Below are positions 1,851 to 27,497 of a DNA stretch of 32,817 nt, in pieces (positions within the stretch are counted from its first letter, which is position 1; each line of letters opens with the position of its first letter). The DNA is taken from positions 1 to 32,817 of the IMG/VR virus record IMGVR_UViG_3300033388_005292. One strand, given 5' to 3'. The notes below the pieces were generated by a model. It was not told where the DNA came from. It saw only the letters and a program-made list of their open reading frames with translations, and searched no databases. The position numbers and the translations under genes were made by a program. The stretch comes from a virus.

Positions 1851-2822
1851 TCAATTAATCTTTCTTTCCTTCCTTCCAAATAATGGATTAGTCATATTAT
1901 GAAATGCTAACCATTCTTCATAAAATCCTATTGTACATTCATGAAATTCTGAGCATTTTTCACAACATCCATTGTAATATGAATTTTCTTGATGTTCTAA
2001 TATATCACTTATCATAGTACCTTTAGGTTCAAATATATCAAAAATATCCTGTTTAAATATATTTCCTAACGGTGTCTCTCTCATTACATCACAGGCACCA
2101 CAAAGATATATAGTACCGTCTGAATCTACAATATTGTCTATTAACGCAAACCAACATACACCTCTACGAGTATCCCAACGACAATTATCTACATCATTAC
2201 GATATCCACACCAATTTCCGTTCCAATAATGTTTCTGAATATTATTCTTATCAAAAAATTCTTTTGATTCTTTCAATTTTGAATAAACATTTATGAAAGA
2301 GTACATATCACTTTTAATAGCATTTTCAATTTCAGGATTTCTTAAAAAGAAATTCATAGATCTAAACGTACTTTTATAAAAGAATCTTACCCATTTGATG
2401 TTTCTATGAAATATATCAAAATAAGTATTAGAATTTGTAAATGAATTAAAATCCTTTCTATTTGTACCATAAAAACTAATAAACATTACAGTTTTAGTGG
2501 TTTCATCAAATAACCATTTAAGTTCTTCTTCCAAATCCATACAACACAGATTAGTGAAGAAGGTAATCCTTTTAACAGCGTCATTTTTCTCTAAATACCC
2601 TATCATTTTAAGGAAATCTTTATTGAGGAAGGGTTCACCCACAGTAGGAGTCAATTGAAACTCATCGTAACCATATTCTATTAGTTTATCAACGATTACT
2701 ACAAAGGTATCAAAACTCATATCTTTAGGGAGATTTTTCTTATCTTCCTTAGTCATATGTTCAAGAGCACAGTTCTTACATTGTAAGTTACAGCGACTCG
2801 TTAGGTTTAACATTATTTCCAT
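1851..2822 (-). CDS. Radical SAM protein with SPASM-like C-terminus
   Basis: This 323-residue protein has the radical SAM signature C11-x3-C15-x2-C18 (TSRCNLQCKNC), which binds a 4Fe-4S cluster and S-adenosylmethionine. The GEP motif for SAM binding is at residues 62-64. The C-terminal third holds many Cys residues (CWFALID, CGACDVM, CCEKCSEFHEC), typical of a SPASM or twitch domain with auxiliary Fe-S clusters. SPASM enzymes usually modify peptides or proteins, but some act on sugars or nucleotides. The start overlaps the stop of a 57-codon gene (TAATG), so it is translationally coupled. Radical SAM chemistry is firmly supported; the substrate is unknown. Confidence 0.9.
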   Translation of the reverse strand: MEIMLNLTSRCNLQCKNCALEHMTKEDKKNLPKDMSFDTFVVIVDKLIEYGYDEFQLTPTVGEPFLNKDFLKMIGYLEKNDAVKRITFFTNLCCMDLEEELKWLFDETTKTVMFISFYGTNRKDFNSFTNSNTYFDIFHRNIKWVRFFYKSTFRSMNFFLRNPEIENAIKSDMYSFINVYSKLKESKEFFDKNNIQKHYWNGNWCGYRNDVDNCRWDTRRGVCWFALIDNIVDSDGTIYLCGACDVMRETPLGNIFKQDIFDIFEPKGTMISDILEHQENSYYNGCCEKCSEFHECTIGFYEEWLAFHNMTNPLFGRKERKIN

Positions 2823-3622: not shown

Positions 3623-3994
3623 TTAAACTTTATCACATTTTTCTTGATTGCAGTCATAACACATTGTTTGATAATTATCTAATGTATTAGAACCACCTTT
3701 AGCTTTAGGGATAATATGATCCTTAGTCATAAGGGTTTCATCACCATTTTCATCAACTGCGTATAGATTAAAATGATAACTTTCTGAACTTGCCATTCTT
3801 TCAGCTGCAAAATGAGTACCTTTTAATCCACAAGTAGCACATCCTAAGTTTTTAACAAATACATCATACCGTTGAGACGTTCTACTTACAATAATTCCAT
3901 CAAATTCAATTTTCTTTGGTCCTCGTGTCTGAAACAACGGAAGGATTTCATCCACAGGATAAAGTTTATGTCTTACGTATTTTTGAACATGCAT
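3623..3994 (-). CDS. HNH endonuclease
   Basis: This 123-residue protein has an HNH nuclease domain: C52-x2-C55 (CATCG), then KDHIIPKAKGGSN with the catalytic D92-H93 pair, then a second Cys pair C112-x2-C115 (CYDCNQ) completing the structural zinc site. The first 45 residues are basic and may bind DNA. Phage HNH proteins of this size are usually free-standing homing endonucleases; some help packaging, but that class sits by the terminase and this one does not. An AGAGGT site precedes the start. Confidence 0.85.
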   Translation of the reverse strand: MHVQKYVRHKLYPVDEILPLFQTRGPKKIEFDGIIVSRTSQRYDVFVKNLGCATCGLKGTHFAAERMASSESYHFNLYAVDENGDETLMTKDHIIPKAKGGSNTLDNYQTMCYDCNQEKCDKV

Positions 3995-4534: not shown

Positions 4535-5932
4535 TTACTTTTGAGCGAGGATAAATCCTTTAATCTTCTCGACATCATTAATATCAATATTTTTATCAAG
4601 AATCCAGTTAATAGTATTACGAATTACCTTACCAATCTTTGGACCAGACTTGATATCAAGCAATTCCATAACAAATTGTCCATTAACAAGCTTCTTAACA
4701 TCTCTTAATTTACCTGAGTCAATAAAATTAGATTTAACCTTTTCGATCTTATCTAATTTTTCTTGCCATTTTTCAGGATTAAAAGCACCTTTTCTGGATT
4801 TGTCATCTGCTTCAGACGTTCTAAATAAAACTTCCCAATTAGGATCGTTTATTAAAGCAACAACCTTTTTATTAGTCATCTTAGTCAATAAATGAAACTT
4901 CATGTGATTCTTAGCTGCAAATTTCAATGCATCACGAGTTTTATTATCGATTTTCAAATCCTTAGCAATATCATCAATCATATGTACTGATTTATTTTCG
5001 TGACCGAAGAAACGATGTAAACCCTTTTCACAAACGAAATGAGTTCGAGTCTTTCCTAGATCATGGAATAAAATAGCTAGATTAATTACAGGATCATTAC
5101 CTTCATGTTTAGCTAATGCAGATATTGTATGCTTCCAAACATTACCCTCAGGATGATGCTCAGGAGAATGATCAAATTGATCCATAATATCCACATCAGG
5201 TAGAATATGCTTCAATAAACCTGTTGCCTTAAGTGTGACAATACTACTAGCAAATTTAATACCTGTTTGTTTAGCCATCTTAAACAATTCAGCAAAGATA
5301 CGCTCTTTAGATACGTTTGTAATCTTTTCAGCGTTATCTTGAATTGCTTGAAATGTATCTGGATGGATAGCAAAACCGAAACGTGTAGCAAATCTAACTG
5401 CACGAATCATCCTAAGGAAATCCTCATTAAATCGTTCTTGAGCATCACCTACAGTATCAATGATACCAATAGTTAAGTCACACTGTCCACCGAAATGATC
5501 AATAATATTACCATCTTTAGACATAGCTAAAGAATTAATAGTTAAATCTCTTCTAGCTGCATCATCTTTAAACTCAGTAACAAATTCAACAGTATCAGGA
5601 TGTCTTCCATCAGAGTAATCTTTTTCTGTACGGAAATTAGCAACTTCGAAGTGTTCATTATTATGTTCAACCACAATAAGACCAAATTCTTTATTACGGC
5701 CAATATTATGAGTATTAAAATGTTCTTCGAGAAGATCTACAGAAACATTAGTAGCAATGTCTACATCATTTATGTCTGTACCTAATAGGATATCACGAAC
5801 AACCCCGCCAACAATAAATGCTTGGGGATTAGTGATATTATTTTCAGCAGCAATTTCAAAAATCCTTTCAATGATTTCAAAAGCATCAGAAACTAAAGGA
5901 TTAGATTTTAGATTTTCAATATTTTCATTCAT
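4535..5932 (-). CDS. cca: CCA-adding-type nucleotidyltransferase with HD domain
   Basis: This 465-residue protein is a class II tRNA nucleotidyltransferase/poly(A) polymerase family member. GGVVRDILLG at residues 42-51 is the nucleotide-binding GGxxRD motif, and D56-V-D58 is the metal-binding DxD pair. ARRDLTINSLA and the ERFNEDFLRMIRAVRFATRF helices are the following family motifs. A C-terminal HD phosphohydrolase domain is marked by ILFHDLGKTRTH. Cellular enzymes of this family add or repair the 3' CCA end of tRNA. No tRNA gene is visible here, so the phage enzyme may act on host tRNAs or on phage tRNAs elsewhere. Poly(A) addition cannot be excluded. Its last codons lie in a 27-bp repeat and hairpin. 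A weak TTGAAT/TATTAT promoter may lie upstream. Confidence 0.88.
   Translation of the reverse strand: MNENIENLKSNPLVSDAFEIIERIFEIAAENNITNPQAFIVGGVVRDILLGTDINDVDIATNVSVDLLEEHFNTHNIGRNKEFGLIVVEHNNEHFEVANFRTEKDYSDGRHPDTVEFVTEFKDDAARRDLTINSLAMSKDGNIIDHFGGQCDLTIGIIDTVGDAQERFNEDFLRMIRAVRFATRFGFAIHPDTFQAIQDNAEKITNVSKERIFAELFKMAKQTGIKFASSIVTLKATGLLKHILPDVDIMDQFDHSPEHHPEGNVWKHTISALAKHEGNDPVINLAILFHDLGKTRTHFVCEKGLHRFFGHENKSVHMIDDIAKDLKIDNKTRDALKFAAKNHMKFHLLTKMTNKKVVALINDPNWEVLFRTSEADDKSRKGAFNPEKWQEKLDKIEKVKSNFIDSGKLRDVKKLVNGQFVMELLDIKSGPKIGKVIRNTINWILDKNIDINDVEKIKGFILAQK
4536..4562. repeat. 27-bp direct repeat, copy 2
   Basis: This stretch is identical to 4041-4067. It encodes the last residues (KGFILAQK) and stop of the nucleotidyltransferase. 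On the minus strand it can also fold with 4520-4534, pairing CCTCG with CGAGG or ATTTATCC with GGATAAAT, so the repeat carries the rising arm of a hairpin at the gene end. Confidence 0.9.
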
Positions 5933-7417: not shown

Positions 7418-7696
7418 TTATTTTCCTCTCTGTTTTTGTTTAATGATCCACTTTTTAAAACGAGCTAAATGTTTATGAGAATTTAATAAACTTAATGTGT
7501 TATATCTAGTAGCTAAATTCATTTCACTGCAAAATTCATGGAATGTTTTATGACAATCACAACAGACATCAATTGTTTCCAGCATTTTCTGTTTAGAAAA
7601 TTTTCTTTTAATTTTCTTTTTAGAATGTGTAGCTTTAGGAATCAAATGATGCCTAGTTGTGTCAGATACATCTCTTTTACAAAATTCACATATCAT
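7418..7696 (-). CDS. HNH endonuclease, small
   Basis: This 92-residue protein has an HNH arrangement: C3-x2-C6 at the start (MICEFCKRD), TRHHLIPKAT with the catalytic His pair, and CCDCHKTFHEFC completing the zinc and metal sites, followed by a basic tail (KKWIIKQKQRGK). The ATG overlaps the stop of the HNH gene upstream by 4 bases, so two unrelated HNH proteins are made from one message. It is probably a free-standing homing nuclease; its own target is unknown. Confidence 0.8.
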   Translation of the reverse strand: MICEFCKRDVSDTTRHHLIPKATHSKKKIKRKFSKQKMLETIDVCCDCHKTFHEFCSEMNLATRYNTLSLLNSHKHLARFKKWIIKQKQRGK

Positions 7697-8283
7697 TTTT
7701 TATGTATATATGGTTTCCAACTATCAGTTAATTTTTCATCATTTTTCATTTTATTCAAAACGGTATCCCATTGTGGTTTAAATGGTTCATTCAATAATTT
7801 CAAATTAGCCTCTTTTGGTGTTCTATCTGCTTTCGTATGATTACATGTCATACACGATGCTACTAAATTAAGCCATGTTGTTTTACCACCTTGTGCTTTA
7901 GGTACAACATGATCAACATTCATATCAGCTTTAGTACCTTGTTTACCACAATATTGACATATAAACTTATCACGCCTTAATATGTTAAGTTTAGTTAGCC
8001 TAGGAGACCTATAAGATGATGCAAATCTAGTCTCCATTTTTATTATTTCTGGGATAATAAAAACATTTTTTAAATTTAATCTAAAATGTAATAAAGTATT
8101 ATCGTGCTCAAATATTTCATTTGAATATTCAATCCATTCCATGAATTCATATGTAGTATATGTATGATCAGCTATTAATGCTCTACCATTCAATACATCA
8201 TTAATACACTTATATACAGTTTTTATGTTAATTGGCATCCAAGAACTATTGAGTACCAAAACTCGTTTTTTAAAAAAATCCAT
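7693..8283 (-). CDS. HNH endonuclease with RVLVLN N-terminus
   Basis: This 196-residue protein begins MDFFKKRVLVLNSSWMPINI, a start shared by a bacterial and phage HNH family. The nuclease domain has C109-x2-C112 (CQYCG), D124-H125 (NVDHVVPKAQGGK), N139, and C144-x2-C147 then H149 (CMTCNH). All residues expected for catalysis and zinc binding are present. A T4-type late promoter (TATAAATA) lies about 30 bases upstream. The leader plus the first codons are duplicated in front of the methyltransferase at 9073-9810. Likely a mobile homing gene. Confidence 0.88.
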   Translation of the reverse strand: MDFFKKRVLVLNSSWMPINIKTVYKCINDVLNGRALIADHTYTTYEFMEWIEYSNEIFEHDNTLLHFRLNLKNVFIIPEIIKMETRFASSYRSPRLTKLNILRRDKFICQYCGKQGTKADMNVDHVVPKAQGGKTTWLNLVASCMTCNHTKADRTPKEANLKLLNEPFKPQWDTVLNKMKNDEKLTDSWKPYIHKK

Positions 8284-18409: not shown

Positions 18410-19408
18410 ATGATTACCATTTTATCAATTGATGGTGGTGGTATAAGAGGCGTTATCCCTGCTAGGATAATCATTGAGATTGAGAACATATTAAAAGTAA
18501 AACTAAATAAGGAAAAAATCGACATATCTGATTATTTTGATCTTATAGCTGGATCAAGTACAGGTGCAATACTTGCATTATTATATTCACTCCCAGATCA
18601 TCCTGATTCCTCAGAAATCCTTAATATTTATTATGATAACGGGAAGAAAATATTTAAAACCAATTTTTGGAAGAGAATTACCTTTGGGTTATTTTCAGAA
18701 AAATATGAAACAAAAAGTATAAAGAATACTCTTAAAGAATATTTTAGTGATTTTAAACTTAGTGATCTTAAAAAGGATTGTTTAGTAACTGCTTTCGATA
18801 TGGAACAATATCGAAGTATTTTTTTCACAAACCCTAAAAGTGATGATAAGGATTTTAAATTAGTTGATGTCGCTTTATCTTCTTCTGCTGCACCTACTTA
18901 TTTTGATCCTTATCCAATGGAATCAGTAGATAAAACAAATAAACATGTAAATGTTGATGGTGGTTTATTTGCAAACAATCCAGCTATGTGTGCAATGATA
19001 GAAGCATGTAAAAATTATAAATGTGATTTAGATGATATTACTATAATTTCCATTGGTACAGGTATGAAATGTGAAAAAAGTCTTTCTATATCTTATGAAA
19101 AGGCAAAAAAATGGGGATTAATTAAATGGATTAAACCACTTATTAATATAATGATGTATGGTACATCAAATATAGTTCACCATCAGTTAAAAATCCTTTT
19201 TACATATTTAAAATCTGATTATTATCGTCTTCAACCAGTTTTTAGTATAAAAGATCAGAAAGATATTTCATTAGAAATGGATGATGCATCAAAGAACAAT
19301 ATAGAAGCATTATTGTTAAAAACTGAAAATTATATTGTAGAAAATTATAGTAAATTGATAAAAGTTGCAGATAAATTGATCGAATTATACGACGAAAAAA
19401 ATTCATAA
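18410..19408 (+). CDS. Patatin-like phospholipase
   Basis: This 332-residue protein is a complete patatin-family acyl hydrolase, which cleaves fatty acids from membrane phospholipids. The oxyanion loop DGGGIRG is at residues 8-14. The nucleophile elbow GSSTG (48-52) contains Ser50, and the partner Asp183 lies in NVDGGLFANNP. The layout resembles the stand-alone bacterial patatins, including the CapV effectors of CBASS defence. No signal peptide or membrane segment is seen. It is the only plus-strand gene between 1 and 24134, convergent with uvsW (12 bases between stops), and has its own late promoter. Possible roles are damage to the host membrane at lysis or membrane remodelling; an anti-phage role against competitors is also possible. 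Confidence 0.92.
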   Translation: MITILSIDGGGIRGVIPARIIIEIENILKVKLNKEKIDISDYFDLIAGSSTGAILALLYSLPDHPDSSEILNIYYDNGKKIFKTNFWKRITFGLFSEKYETKSIKNTLKEYFSDFKLSDLKKDCLVTAFDMEQYRSIFFTNPKSDDKDFKLVDVALSSSAAPTYFDPYPMESVDKTNKHVNVDGGLFANNPAMCAMIEACKNYKCDLDDITIISIGTGMKCEKSLSISYEKAKKWGLIKWIKPLINIMMYGTSNIVHHQLKILFTYLKSDYYRLQPVFSIKDQKDISLEMDDASKNNIEALLLKTENYIVENYSKLIKVADKLIELYDEKNS

Positions 19409-24686: not shown

Positions 24687-24971
24687 TCAAGGTTTATTAT
24701 AATTATACGGTGAAGCATTTATACCAGTTATAGATGCTTCACCTTTTTTATGCCAAATTAATTCACCACTAAAATTACCTTCGATAATATATTCCCCATC
24801 ATGAGTTAGATCATGACAGTTTGGGCAAATCCATGCAAGATTCCAAAGTTCATCCCAACGAGGTATATTTCTTCCATGAATATGGTGACAGACTAATTTA
24901 GTTTTAGTCTTACATATAGGGCATTCTCTCTTACCACTTCTATTACTTTTCCTAATATTTCTCTTACTCAT
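24687..24971 (-). CDS. HNH endonuclease next to the fractured terminase gene
   Basis: This 94-residue protein has C17-x2-C20 (CPICK), VCHHIHGRN with H29-H30, N44 in ELWNLAWICPNC, a second pair C49-x2-C52, and H57. These are the full HNH set. The N-terminus is very basic (MSKRNIRKSNRSGKR). It lies on the opposite strand to all surrounding late genes, a mark of a mobile insertion, and only 340 bases before the terminase gene that is broken by a split intein. It might be the homing nuclease linked to that fracture. No clear ribosome binding site is seen. Confidence 0.82.
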   Translation of the reverse strand: MSKRNIRKSNRSGKRECPICKTKTKLVCHHIHGRNIPRWDELWNLAWICPNCHDLTHDGEYIIEGNFSGELIWHKKGEASITGINASPYNYNKP

Positions 24972-25310: not shown

Positions 25311-26498
25311 ATGATTAATTTAGAAAATATTGATATTATTGATTCTAAAAAAATTGGTTATTACTTTATCAATCAGATTAAAGAAAACAATGAATATAAA
25401 ATAACTAAAAGTAAAATCAATTATAAACATAAGGATGCTTATCCACATATGTTTAAAGAGGTATATAAATGCTCAGATGATAATGAATGTAATGAGAATT
25501 TTTTGGATTATCAAAAGACTATTGAAACATATGTCAAAAATGTTGACCTTTTAAATGATACTTTTAATGAATTTACTTATATGAAGAATAAAAATATTAC
25601 TAAAGGTAATATTCGTATTGATCTTCCTCAGGATTTAGGTAAATTTAGATTAGAAGAAACAATTAGATGTACATACGACCCTATTTATTTTATAGATAAT
25701 TATTATTATATTATTAGTCCGACGTATGGTAAAAGTATAATATCTATGTATATAAAACAAGAAGGGTTATTGCGATCTATGATCGAGAATGATCGAGTTG
25801 TAACCTTAGCTTCTAGACAATGTGGAAAATCAACTTCGTATTGTATGTATGCTTGTCATACTGTATGTTTTAAAGAAAATCAAAATATTCTATTATTGGC
25901 AAATAAATTATCAACAGCCAAAGGTATTTTAGCAAGAATTAAATTTGCATTTGAGTTATTACCTAAATGGCTTAAACCTGGTGTTAAAACCTGGAATAAA
26001 GAATCTGTAGAATTTACAAATGGTTGTACTATTACAGCATTTGCTGCTTCATCTGATGGTGCTCGTTCTGAAGCAGCTAATGTACTTATTATTGATGAAA
26101 TGGCTTTTATTCCAGCTAATGTAGTAGAAGAATTATGGCAATCAGCGTATCCAACAATTTCTTCATCCAATAATTCTAAAGTAATACTTGTATCAACACC
26201 ATTCGGTACTGGTAATATGTTTTATGAATTATATTCAGCTGCAATTACACAACAAGATAATGATAATGTTATAGAGAAATGGACACCTTATAGAATCGAT
26301 TGGTGGGATGTTCCTAATAGGGATGAAGTATGGAAGGAAAAACAATTAGTAGCATTTAACTATAATATGAAACGATTTAATCAAGAATTTGGTAATTGTG
26401 TTCATGGTGATACTATTGTTAAGTTAAGAGATAAAAAAACTGGTAAAGAGTTTGAATCTACTTTAACTAAAATTTATAATAAACTCAAAATGAAGTAA
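25311..26498 (+). CDS. 17: Terminase large subunit, ATPase half fused to a split-intein N-part
   Basis: This 395-residue protein is the N-terminal half of a gp17-type terminase, the motor that packages DNA. Walker A is SRQCGKST (168-175), Walker B VLIIDEMAF (258-266, D262-E263), and motif III is ILVSTPFGTG. The match to T4 gp17 runs through LLPKWLKPGVKTWNKESVEF and ends at RFNQEFGN (355-362). T4 continues there into the nuclease domain, but here Cys363 begins CVHGDTIVKL, an intein block A, and the frame stops after 33 intein residues. The nuclease half is absent from the window. A GAGGTT site precedes the ATG. The active enzyme would need protein trans-splicing. Confidence 0.93.
   Translation: MINLENIDIIDSKKIGYYFINQIKENNEYKITKSKINYKHKDAYPHMFKEVYKCSDDNECNENFLDYQKTIETYVKNVDLLNDTFNEFTYMKNKNITKGNIRIDLPQDLGKFRLEETIRCTYDPIYFIDNYYYIISPTYGKSIISMYIKQEGLLRSMIENDRVVTLASRQCGKSTSYCMYACHTVCFKENQNILLLANKLSTAKGILARIKFAFELLPKWLKPGVKTWNKESVEFTNGCTITAFAASSDGARSEAANVLIIDEMAFIPANVVEELWQSAYPTISSSNNSKVILVSTPFGTGNMFYELYSAAITQQDNDNVIEKWTPYRIDWWDVPNRDEVWKEKQLVAFNYNMKRFNQEFGNCVHGDTIVKLRDKKTGKEFESTLTKIYNKLKMK
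26397..26495 (+). other. Atypically split intein, N-terminal fragment (33 aa)
   Basis: Residues 363-395 of the terminase ORF start with Cys and read CVHGDTIVKLRDKKTGKEF, matching intein block A (C-x-x-G-D-T-x-V). The preceding extein residues QEFGN are at a conserved terminase site. The fragment ends before block B, so it is far shorter than usual N-inteins of about 100 residues. It is close to the 25-residue N-part of the AceL-TerL intein, as I remember it, which also interrupts a phage terminase. Confidence 0.88.
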
Positions 26499-26499
26499 T

Positions 26500-26526
26500 G
26501 TAATAATATGAAATTCAATGAAAAAT
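26500..26526 (+). repeat. Duplicated gene start, copy 1
   Basis: This 27-base stretch over the start codon (GTAATAATATGAAATT and on) recurs at 26881-26907 with a single mismatch. It encodes MKFNEK in both genes. Confidence 0.7.
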
Positions 26527-26879
26527 TTAATAAATTGACTAATAGGGATATAGTAATTACTATACCTAAAAGTATTTTATGGTCTGATTATGAAAAGGAA
26601 ATATTGAAAGCTTCTAAGGGTGAAATTATGAATTTTAAAGTTAATAATTTTCCTAATACTAAAAAAGGTTGTAAATGTTATATAGTTCACGAGGGTTTAG
26701 TTAAAGGTTATATGTATGTTTCTGGTCTTTCTGAAAGGGAATTTAAATGTTCAACAACTGGAAAGGACTGGAAAGGGAAATTCATTGAAAGAACAGGAAA
26801 ATTTTATCCACTTAAGAATCCTATTAAGATGAAAGGATTTCAAGGATATAGATATTTTGATCAAGGTTTAAACACATAA
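26508..26879 (+). CDS. Hypothetical protein, possibly PUA/ASCH-like, 123 aa
   Basis: This 123-residue protein starts MKFNEKFNKLTNRDIVIT. Its body has the pattern KKGCKCYIVHEGLVKGYMYV and GFQGYRYFDQG, which recalls small PUA/ASCH/EVE-type beta-barrel domains that bind modified nucleotides or RNA. This is a weak pattern judgement. It follows the broken terminase by 9 bases, in the place where an intact terminase would continue. It contains no intein C-part (no terminal HN) and no nuclease motifs. The start region is duplicated at the next gene (26881-26907). There is no clear ribosome binding site. Confidence 0.65.
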   Translation: MKFNEKFNKLTNRDIVITIPKSILWSDYEKEILKASKGEIMNFKVNNFPNTKKGCKCYIVHEGLVKGYMYVSGLSEREFKCSTTGKDWKGKFIERTGKFYPLKNPIKMKGFQGYRYFDQGLNT

Positions 26880-26880
26880 G

Positions 26881-26907
26881 GTAATAATATGAAATTTAAT
26901 GAAAAAT
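26881..26907 (+). repeat. Duplicated gene start, copy 2
   Basis: This is the partner of 26500-26526, with one mismatch, over the start of the 202-residue gene. The proteins diverge immediately afterwards. Confidence 0.7.
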
Positions 26908-27497
26908 GTTTTTTAATTGATAGTAAGATATGGCATGGATCATATTCTAAGAATTTAAATGTAAGTGGTGCTTTTAAGAATTTAAATGAATCACTTTCTT
27001 ATAATGCAGCATTAGATGCTATGAATGAAGTTGGTGATACTGCTGTATATGACTATGGTGATGGTGATCATGTTTTGACATATAAGAGTAATCGTTGTTA
27101 TAATAAAGGAAAATTTAACGAATATATGGTTAAAGATATCCTGCCAGATAAAGATAAAACATATCCTATGAAAATGGCATATAATAAAAATGGTTATATG
27201 GGTAGTCCGAAAATGGCTAAGTATTTATGTACAGAATTACAGTTAGTTCCAGAAATGGCTGATAGTAAACATTCTGTTTGTAGTATTGGTAAAAGTGAAA
27301 AGGACGGTAAATGGTATGGATGGTCTCATAGAGCTGTATGTGGATTTGATAAAGGTGATAAAATTTTTGATTCAAAATATGTAAAAGAAGGTGCAGATAT
27401 GGATGACATGCCTTTTATTGAACGCGGTGAAGAAGTTATAAAAACTGATGAAGATGCTAAAAAAGCAGCTAAGAATTTTGCTAATTATATGTCATAA
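26889..27497 (+). CDS. Hypothetical late protein, 202 aa, putative processed head protein
   Basis: I do not recognise the family. The protein starts MKFNEKCFLI and has NLNE at about 31-34, where LNE fits the prohead protease site. Processing there would release a segment starting SLSYNAALDAMNEVGD. Later features are KYLCTELQLVPEM, KDGKWYGWSHRAVCGFDKGD and an acidic/basic C-terminus. There is no membrane segment. An AAGGT precedes the ATG. It lies in the late operon with other proteins sharing the N-terminal MKF pattern. Confidence 0.7.
   Translation: MKFNEKCFLIDSKIWHGSYSKNLNVSGAFKNLNESLSYNAALDAMNEVGDTAVYDYGDGDHVLTYKSNRCYNKGKFNEYMVKDILPDKDKTYPMKMAYNKNGYMGSPKMAKYLCTELQLVPEMADSKHSVCSIGKSEKDGKWYGWSHRAVCGFDKGDKIFDSKYVKEGADMDDMPFIERGEEVIKTDEDAKKAAKNFANYMS

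What the first reader, a model, noticed from the sequence alone, without database searches (positions are those of the whole stretch)
25311..26498. Terminase gene fractured by an atypically split intein
Seen directly: the gp17-like frame matches the ATPase half and stops 33 residues after a conserved extein site (QEFGN). Those 33 residues begin CVHGDTIVKL, an intein block A. No nuclease half, intein block B or C-terminal HN+Ser/Thr/Cys junction exists in any frame of the window, and unrelated genes follow. Known: short-N split inteins such as AceL-TerL (about 25-residue N-part) were found in phage terminase genes from environmental DNA. Inference: packaging in this phage depends on protein trans-splicing. 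A new short N-intein with its genomic context is also valuable biochemically.
Basis: partly seen in the sequence, partly recalled or inferred. Interest (0 to 1): 0.9.

Follow-up and report, generated by a model that had tools for sequence, protein, structure and literature searches.

The report
Half a phage terminase, split-intein ended
This phage DNA encodes only the front half of the enzyme that packs DNA into virus heads, ending in a short tag that in relatives glues it to a separately made back half; the back half is not in this fragment, so the two halves are probably encoded far apart.

Summary
ORF 25311-26498 is a complete gp17-type terminase ATPase. It breaks off at a conserved site (QEFGN) and continues for 33 residues that match the N-part of atypically split TerL inteins: a profile built only from other loci gives E = 2e-7, and the next window frame gives 0.79. 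Profiles of the C-intein and nuclease domain find nothing in six frames. Relatives show what the missing partner looks like: a contig 47% identical over the ATPase has an N-part at the same site and the C-intein-nuclease gene 0.2 kb downstream. Sixty-five IMG/VR loci have both halves, never more than 1.11 kb apart; the window has 6.3 kb downstream and 25.3 kb upstream without one. Dispersed split terminases do exist in public complete genomes: Campylobacter phage NCTC12673 (halves 27 kb apart, opposite strands) and Salicola phage SCTP-2 (three pieces across 440 kb). So this is a member of the known AceL/GOS/Cat-TerL class, inserted one residue downstream of the commoner position and probably dispersed. 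The C-half was not recovered (the record is a fragment) and splicing is untested. An assembly break or a relic copy cannot be excluded.

The parts
25311..26396 (+). N-extein: terminase large subunit (gp17-type) ATPase half, residues 1-362, ending at the conserved junction QEFGN
   Evidence: T4 gp17 match E 1e-37; Pfam PF03237 1.7e-21; inteinless relatives continue through this junction
26397..26495 (+). N-part of an atypically split intein, 33 residues starting at Cys1 (CVHGDTIVKLRDKKTGKEFESTLTKIYNKLKMK)
   Evidence: N-part profile from other loci E 2.1e-7; aligned with 12 other N-parts; family profile matches CatN of 6dsl at 2.6e-4
26496..26498 (+). Stop codon TAA ending the N-half; also the first base of a 31-nt repeat
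   Evidence: Sequence; repeat D1
26496..26526 (+). First copy of a 31-nt direct repeat, spanning the TerL-N stop and the start of the next gene; second copy (94%) at 26877-26907
   Evidence: the repeat finder; only these two copies in the window, none expected in shuffles
26508..26879 (+). Gene of unknown function lying where the C-intein/nuclease gene lies in relatives; single phage match, in the 462-kb record LR756500
   Evidence: no family; 49.5% identity, E 1e-24

Best explanation
This is the N-half of a fractured phage terminase large subunit. The gene makes the ATPase domain fused to a short N-intein. A second gene, outside this fragment, makes a C-intein of roughly 105 residues fused to the nuclease domain. 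The N-part threads into the C-part, the rebuilt intein excises by class 1 chemistry through Cys1, and the ATPase is joined after QEFGN to the nuclease half to give full-length TerL. In this phage the two genes are probably dispersed: more than 6.3 kb apart downstream, or more than 25.3 kb apart upstream, instead of neighbours. Shown: the N-half, the identity and exact site of the N-intein, and the absence of the partner from the contig. Inferred: the existence and distance of the partner, the splicing, and its need for packaging.
For: N-part profile E 2.1e-7. Exact conserved insertion point. L002, the nearest ATPase found (47%), has an N-part at the same site and the C-intein/nuclease gene 178 nt on; L069, L070 and L072 likewise. 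18 of 18 further IMG/VR terminase loci baited on the N-junction alone and with enough sequence have a C-half. Real dispersal precedents: NCTC12673 about 27 kb and opposite strands, SCTP-2 in three pieces, LR756501 about 12.6 kb. Catalytic ATPase motifs are intact, and composition and gene style do not change across the point.
Against: The C-half of this genome was never seen. In all 65 split IMG/VR loci with both halves the gap is at most 1.11 kb, so a lone N-half is atypical and an assembly error or a relic would look the same. No read data and no close relative were available.
Confidence: 0.73

Rival explanations
1. The split is real but the separation is not: the contig is chimeric or misassembled just after the N-half, and in the true genome the C-half follows within about 1 kb as in the other loci.
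For: 65 of 65 two-gene loci have adjacent halves. A 31-nt repeat starts exactly at the N-half's stop codon, the kind of place where assembly can go wrong.
Against: GC, GC skew and third-position GC run on unchanged. Genes with the same kind of MKF-leader lie on both sides of the point. The repeat recurs only 381 nt on in the same contig. Dispersed halves do exist in complete genomes.
Confidence: 0.12
2. The N-half is a relic: a recombination or deletion removed the C-half and the phage uses another, intact terminase, or none (defective genome).
For: No C-half in the window. The cassette-like repeat directly at the stop codon shows past recombination there.
Against: The ORF is full length with all ATPase motifs, and the N-intein is not degenerate. 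Phages rarely keep a dead 1.2-kb gene (general knowledge).
Confidence: 0.1
3. Not an intein: the ATPase gene simply ends with an unrelated 33-residue tail and works as a separate ATPase subunit.
For: The tail alone finds no intein chain in the PDB by single-sequence search.
Against: Profile E 2.1e-7 with Cys1 exactly at the conserved junction; homologous tails sit in genes whose neighbours are C-intein/nuclease fusions.
Confidence: 0.03

Closest known systems
AceL-TerL, GOS-TerL and the consensus Cat-TerL: atypically split inteins of T4-like terminase (IntN 25, 37 and 30 aa; IntC 104, 115 and 104 aa; review PMC11766414)
   Same: Same host gene (TerL), same short N-part of about 30 residues starting at Cys1 (Ser1 in GOS-TerL), recognisable with a family profile that matches CatN
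   Different: The C-part is unknown here.
L002 (IMGVR_UViG_3300035698_012468) and L070, L069, L072: split TerL genes at or near the same junction
   Same: QE[FY]GN|C N-junction (L069: QEMEA|C), N-part of 30-34 residues, partner with HN|CF
   Different: Their two halves are neighbours, 0.2-0.9 kb apart at most (L070 has a further coding stretch fused ahead of the C-intein)
Fletchervirus terminase (Campylobacter phage NCTC12673) and Salicola phage SCTP-2 terminase
   Same: TerL broken by short-N split inteins with the pieces far apart in the genome. SCTP-2's second N-part is the most like the window's (16 of 30 identical)
   Different: Their inteins sit at the Walker A and Walker B motifs, not at the ATPase-nuclease junction
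Fractured genes with split inteins and an intervening homing endonuclease (arrangement described for AceL NrdHF in PMC7891396)
   Same: A gene broken into two ORFs by a split intein in a phage
   Different: No second half is in view, so no intervening endonuclease can be seen; an HNH gene lies upstream on the other strand (24687-24971)

Membership tests
Atypically split TerL intein (AceL/GOS/Cat-TerL class) | Host protein is a T4-type terminase large subunit | tested here: met
   gp17 and Pfam matches
Atypically split TerL intein (AceL/GOS/Cat-TerL class) | Short N-part (25-37 aa) starting at Cys1 or Ser1, block A, ending at a stop codon | tested here: met
   33 residues, Cys1, profile E 2.1e-7; alignment with other N-parts
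Atypically split TerL intein (AceL/GOS/Cat-TerL class) | C-part of about 104-115 aa ending HN before Cys/Ser/Thr, fused to the TerL nuclease domain, in the same genome | tested here: inconclusive
   Absent from the 32.8 kb, but the record is a fragment; present in relatives
Atypically split TerL intein (AceL/GOS/Cat-TerL class) | Protein trans-splicing activity | not testable with these tools
   Needs co-expression with a C-part
Dispersed fractured terminase (as in NCTC12673 and SCTP-2) | Halves not adjacent | tested here: met
   None within 6,319 nt downstream or 25,310 nt upstream, subject to the assembly being right
Dispersed fractured terminase (as in NCTC12673 and SCTP-2) | Both halves present, kilobases apart, in one genome | tested here: inconclusive
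   Only the N-half is seen; no complete genome is held

The most novel reading that the evidence does not exclude
The packaging motor of this phage, perhaps a very large one, is assembled by trans-splicing of two polypeptides encoded at distant loci, the QEFGN|C intein halves having been driven apart by insertion or reshuffling of leader-repeat gene cassettes directly at the N-half's stop codon. Dispersed fractured terminases would then be a recurrent state reached in several phage lineages and at several intein sites.
Probability: 0.6. Interest if true: 0.6.

Novelty: new member of a known kind. Interest (0 to 1): 0.5.

Why it matters
Split inteins with a short N-part are sought for peptide labelling, and only a few from TerL have been characterised. 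This case leads to dozens more with genomic context, to a second insertion register, and to public isolates with dispersed, even three-piece, terminases. An essential motor that can form only after products of distant genes meet makes an old question testable in phages that can be grown: is trans-splicing a tolerated parasite, or does it time packaging?

Tried and rejected
A single-sequence search of IMG/VR with the N-half found no relative. C-half patterns for this register returned only loci whose N-half is adjacent. Rfam and tRNA scans of the window were empty, so no known RNA family or tRNA lies there. A contiguous intein hidden by a wrong stop codon was rejected because no C-half exists in any frame of the window. 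L071 (contiguous intein in a more distant terminase) and L205 (not a terminase) were set aside as off-target pattern hits. L043, listed by script as a C-half without N-half, does have one in the same stretch, with another ORF between. No paper on dispersed TerL split inteins was found, but the library holds only open-licence papers. Structure prediction was not used: it would not have tested the missing half.

Full report
What is there. The window is a whole 32,817-base IMG/VR virus record, probably a fragment. ORF 25311-26498 (+) encodes 395 residues. Its middle part matches T4 gp17 structures at E about 1e-37 and Pfam Terminase_6N at 1.7e-21; SRQCGKS, LIIDE and STPFG are intact, read directly. 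At QEFGN (26382-26396) the terminase match ends, and 33 residues follow to the stop at 26496-26498.

Is the tail an N-intein? A profile was built from 23 N-parts of other loci, leaving the window out. In the six frames of the window it finds this tail at E = 2.1e-7, aligned from Cys1; the next frame scores 0.79. A family profile that includes the window row matches CatN, the N-part of the solved consensus atypical intein 6dsl, at 2.6e-4; the window tail alone does not find it. The site is exact: inteinless relatives, fetched by a motif just upstream, mostly read QEFGN followed by one residue and F, with no interruption.

Is the other half missing? Profiles for the C-intein and the TerL nuclease domain, built from the 45 non-redundant C-half loci, find nothing in any frame with all filters off (best E 2.6 and 2.1). 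A joint C-intein/nuclease profile also finds nothing in the window, while it scores 2e-95 in the L070 record, which was not used to build it (the higher scores for L002 and L072 are of rows used in building). So 25,310 nt upstream and 6,319 nt downstream hold no partner.

What relatives do. L002, the nearest ATPase found (47% identity), has QEFGN|CVSGDTFIDI... with a 30-residue N-part and, 178 nt on, a gene with a C-intein ending VVSHN|CFHGSSFTLI and the nuclease domain. L070, L069 and L072 repeat the pattern. A pattern for HN|CEFLGS..TLI gave 66 stretches; most are split, and L031, L039 and L068 are contiguous. Over all loci with both halves, 65 have gaps of -41 to 1,110 nt between open frames. 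Many are near-copies, so these are not 65 independent cases. A search baited on the N-junction alone, not biased by the C-half, gave 20 stretches: one is not a terminase, one ends 429 nt after the N-half, and the other 18 all have the C-half next door. The window is therefore an outlier in IMG/VR.

Precedents for dispersal. In Campylobacter phage NCTC12673 the N-half ends IFIDE|CVAGDTKITVRNKKTG... at about 46.0 kb (-), and the C-half...NFVSHN|CAFIDKW..., begins at about 72.9 kb (+). In Salicola phage SCTP-2 the terminase is in three pieces: 429 kb (-) ending RQLGK|CVDYETN...; 256 kb (+) with a C-part at its start and |CLDGETTVKLRDKESG... near its end; and 216-218 kb (-) with a C-part, what looks like a further contiguous intein, and the nuclease. 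In the 735-kb record LR756501 an N-piece (624 kb, -) and a C-piece (611 kb, -) are about 12.6 kb apart. Of the seven N-parts compared, SCTP-2's second one is most like the window's, 16 of 30 identical. That these pieces splice is inferred from their anatomy; nothing was assayed.

Insertion register and history. In the commoner group the junctions are QEFx|C and HN|CEFLGS; in the window, L002, L070 and L072 the N-junction is QE[FY]GN|C and the known partners read HN|CF, one residue further on. On a tree of ATPase domains the downstream-site bearers are scattered among inteinless relatives, and strongly supported branches force at least six changes. This fits repeated gain or loss. The window and L002 both sit on long branches, so their pairing is uncertain.

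How it probably works. In Cat-TerL a disordered short N-part folds onto a partly folded C-part to form the active intein (PMC11766414). By analogy the N-part here should thread into its C-part, and class 1 splicing should join QEFGN to the nuclease half. Splicing, and its need for packaging, are inferred.

Why the halves may be apart. A 31-nt repeat starts exactly at the TerL-N stop codon and recurs (94%) 381 nt on, in front of the Tad6-like gene; each copy spans the stop codon of one gene and the start of the next. This suggests cassette insertion or exchange at this spot. The gene between the copies has a single phage match, in the 462-kb record LR756500, and the long protein at 28864-31887 matches stretches of Bacillus phage G and other very large phages, a hint that the source phage is large. 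None of this proves that the halves were separated here. GC, skew, third-position GC and gene style do not change across the point, which speaks mildly against a chimera.

Limits. The C-half remains the decisive missing piece.

Noticed in passing
Salicola phage SCTP-2 (MF360958): 429,359-429,748 (-), 256,428-257,321 (+), 215,993-218,077 (-): Its terminase large subunit is in three dispersed pieces bearing two split inteins, at Walker A (RQLGK|C) and near Walker B, plus an apparent contiguous intein in the third piece; two trans-splicing steps would be needed.
   Followed up: partly
Campylobacter phage NCTC12673 (NC_015464): about 46.0-46.7 kb (-) and 72.9-74.2 kb (+): Terminase halves about 27 kb apart on opposite strands, split at Walker B by a short-N intein; neither half is in the record's listed features. 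About 40 Campylobacter phage records show matches to both parts.
   Followed up: partly
LR756501 (735 kb): 623.9-624.2 kb (-) and 609.4-611.4 kb (-); LR756500 (462 kb): 197.4-197.7 kb (-) and 194.3-196.0 kb (-): Uncultured very large phages with terminase split at Walker A; pieces about 12.6 kb apart in LR756501 and close together in LR756500.
   Followed up: partly
26889-27497 (+): Gene next door but one matches Pfam Tad6, an inhibitor of type I Thoeris defence, at E 1e-31 over residues 86-202; a likely anti-defence gene.
   Followed up: no
24489, 26508, 26889 and 27527 (+): Several small neighbouring genes share an N-terminal leader of the form MKF(N/E/K)...; L002 neighbours have MKFNEVYDNFINEA, MKFKELYESVVNEA, and LR756500 has MKYI(L/K)EYEEFLLE on many genes, including a homologue of the 26508 gene. 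Reminiscent of the T4 capsid-targeting leader (from memory, untested).
   Followed up: partly
L069 1-2955 (+): A terminase gene apparently carrying three inteins: the C-part of one near the start, a contiguous one in the middle, and the short-N split one at the nuclease junction.
   Followed up: no
3623-3994 (-), 7693-8283 (-), 24687-24971 (-): Three HNH endonuclease genes scattered through the fragment, one just upstream of the terminase half.
   Followed up: no
1851-2822 (-), 4535-5932 (-), 18410-19408 (+): Radical SAM/SPASM protein, a CCA-adding-type nucleotidyltransferase with HD domain, and a patatin-like phospholipase.
   Followed up: no
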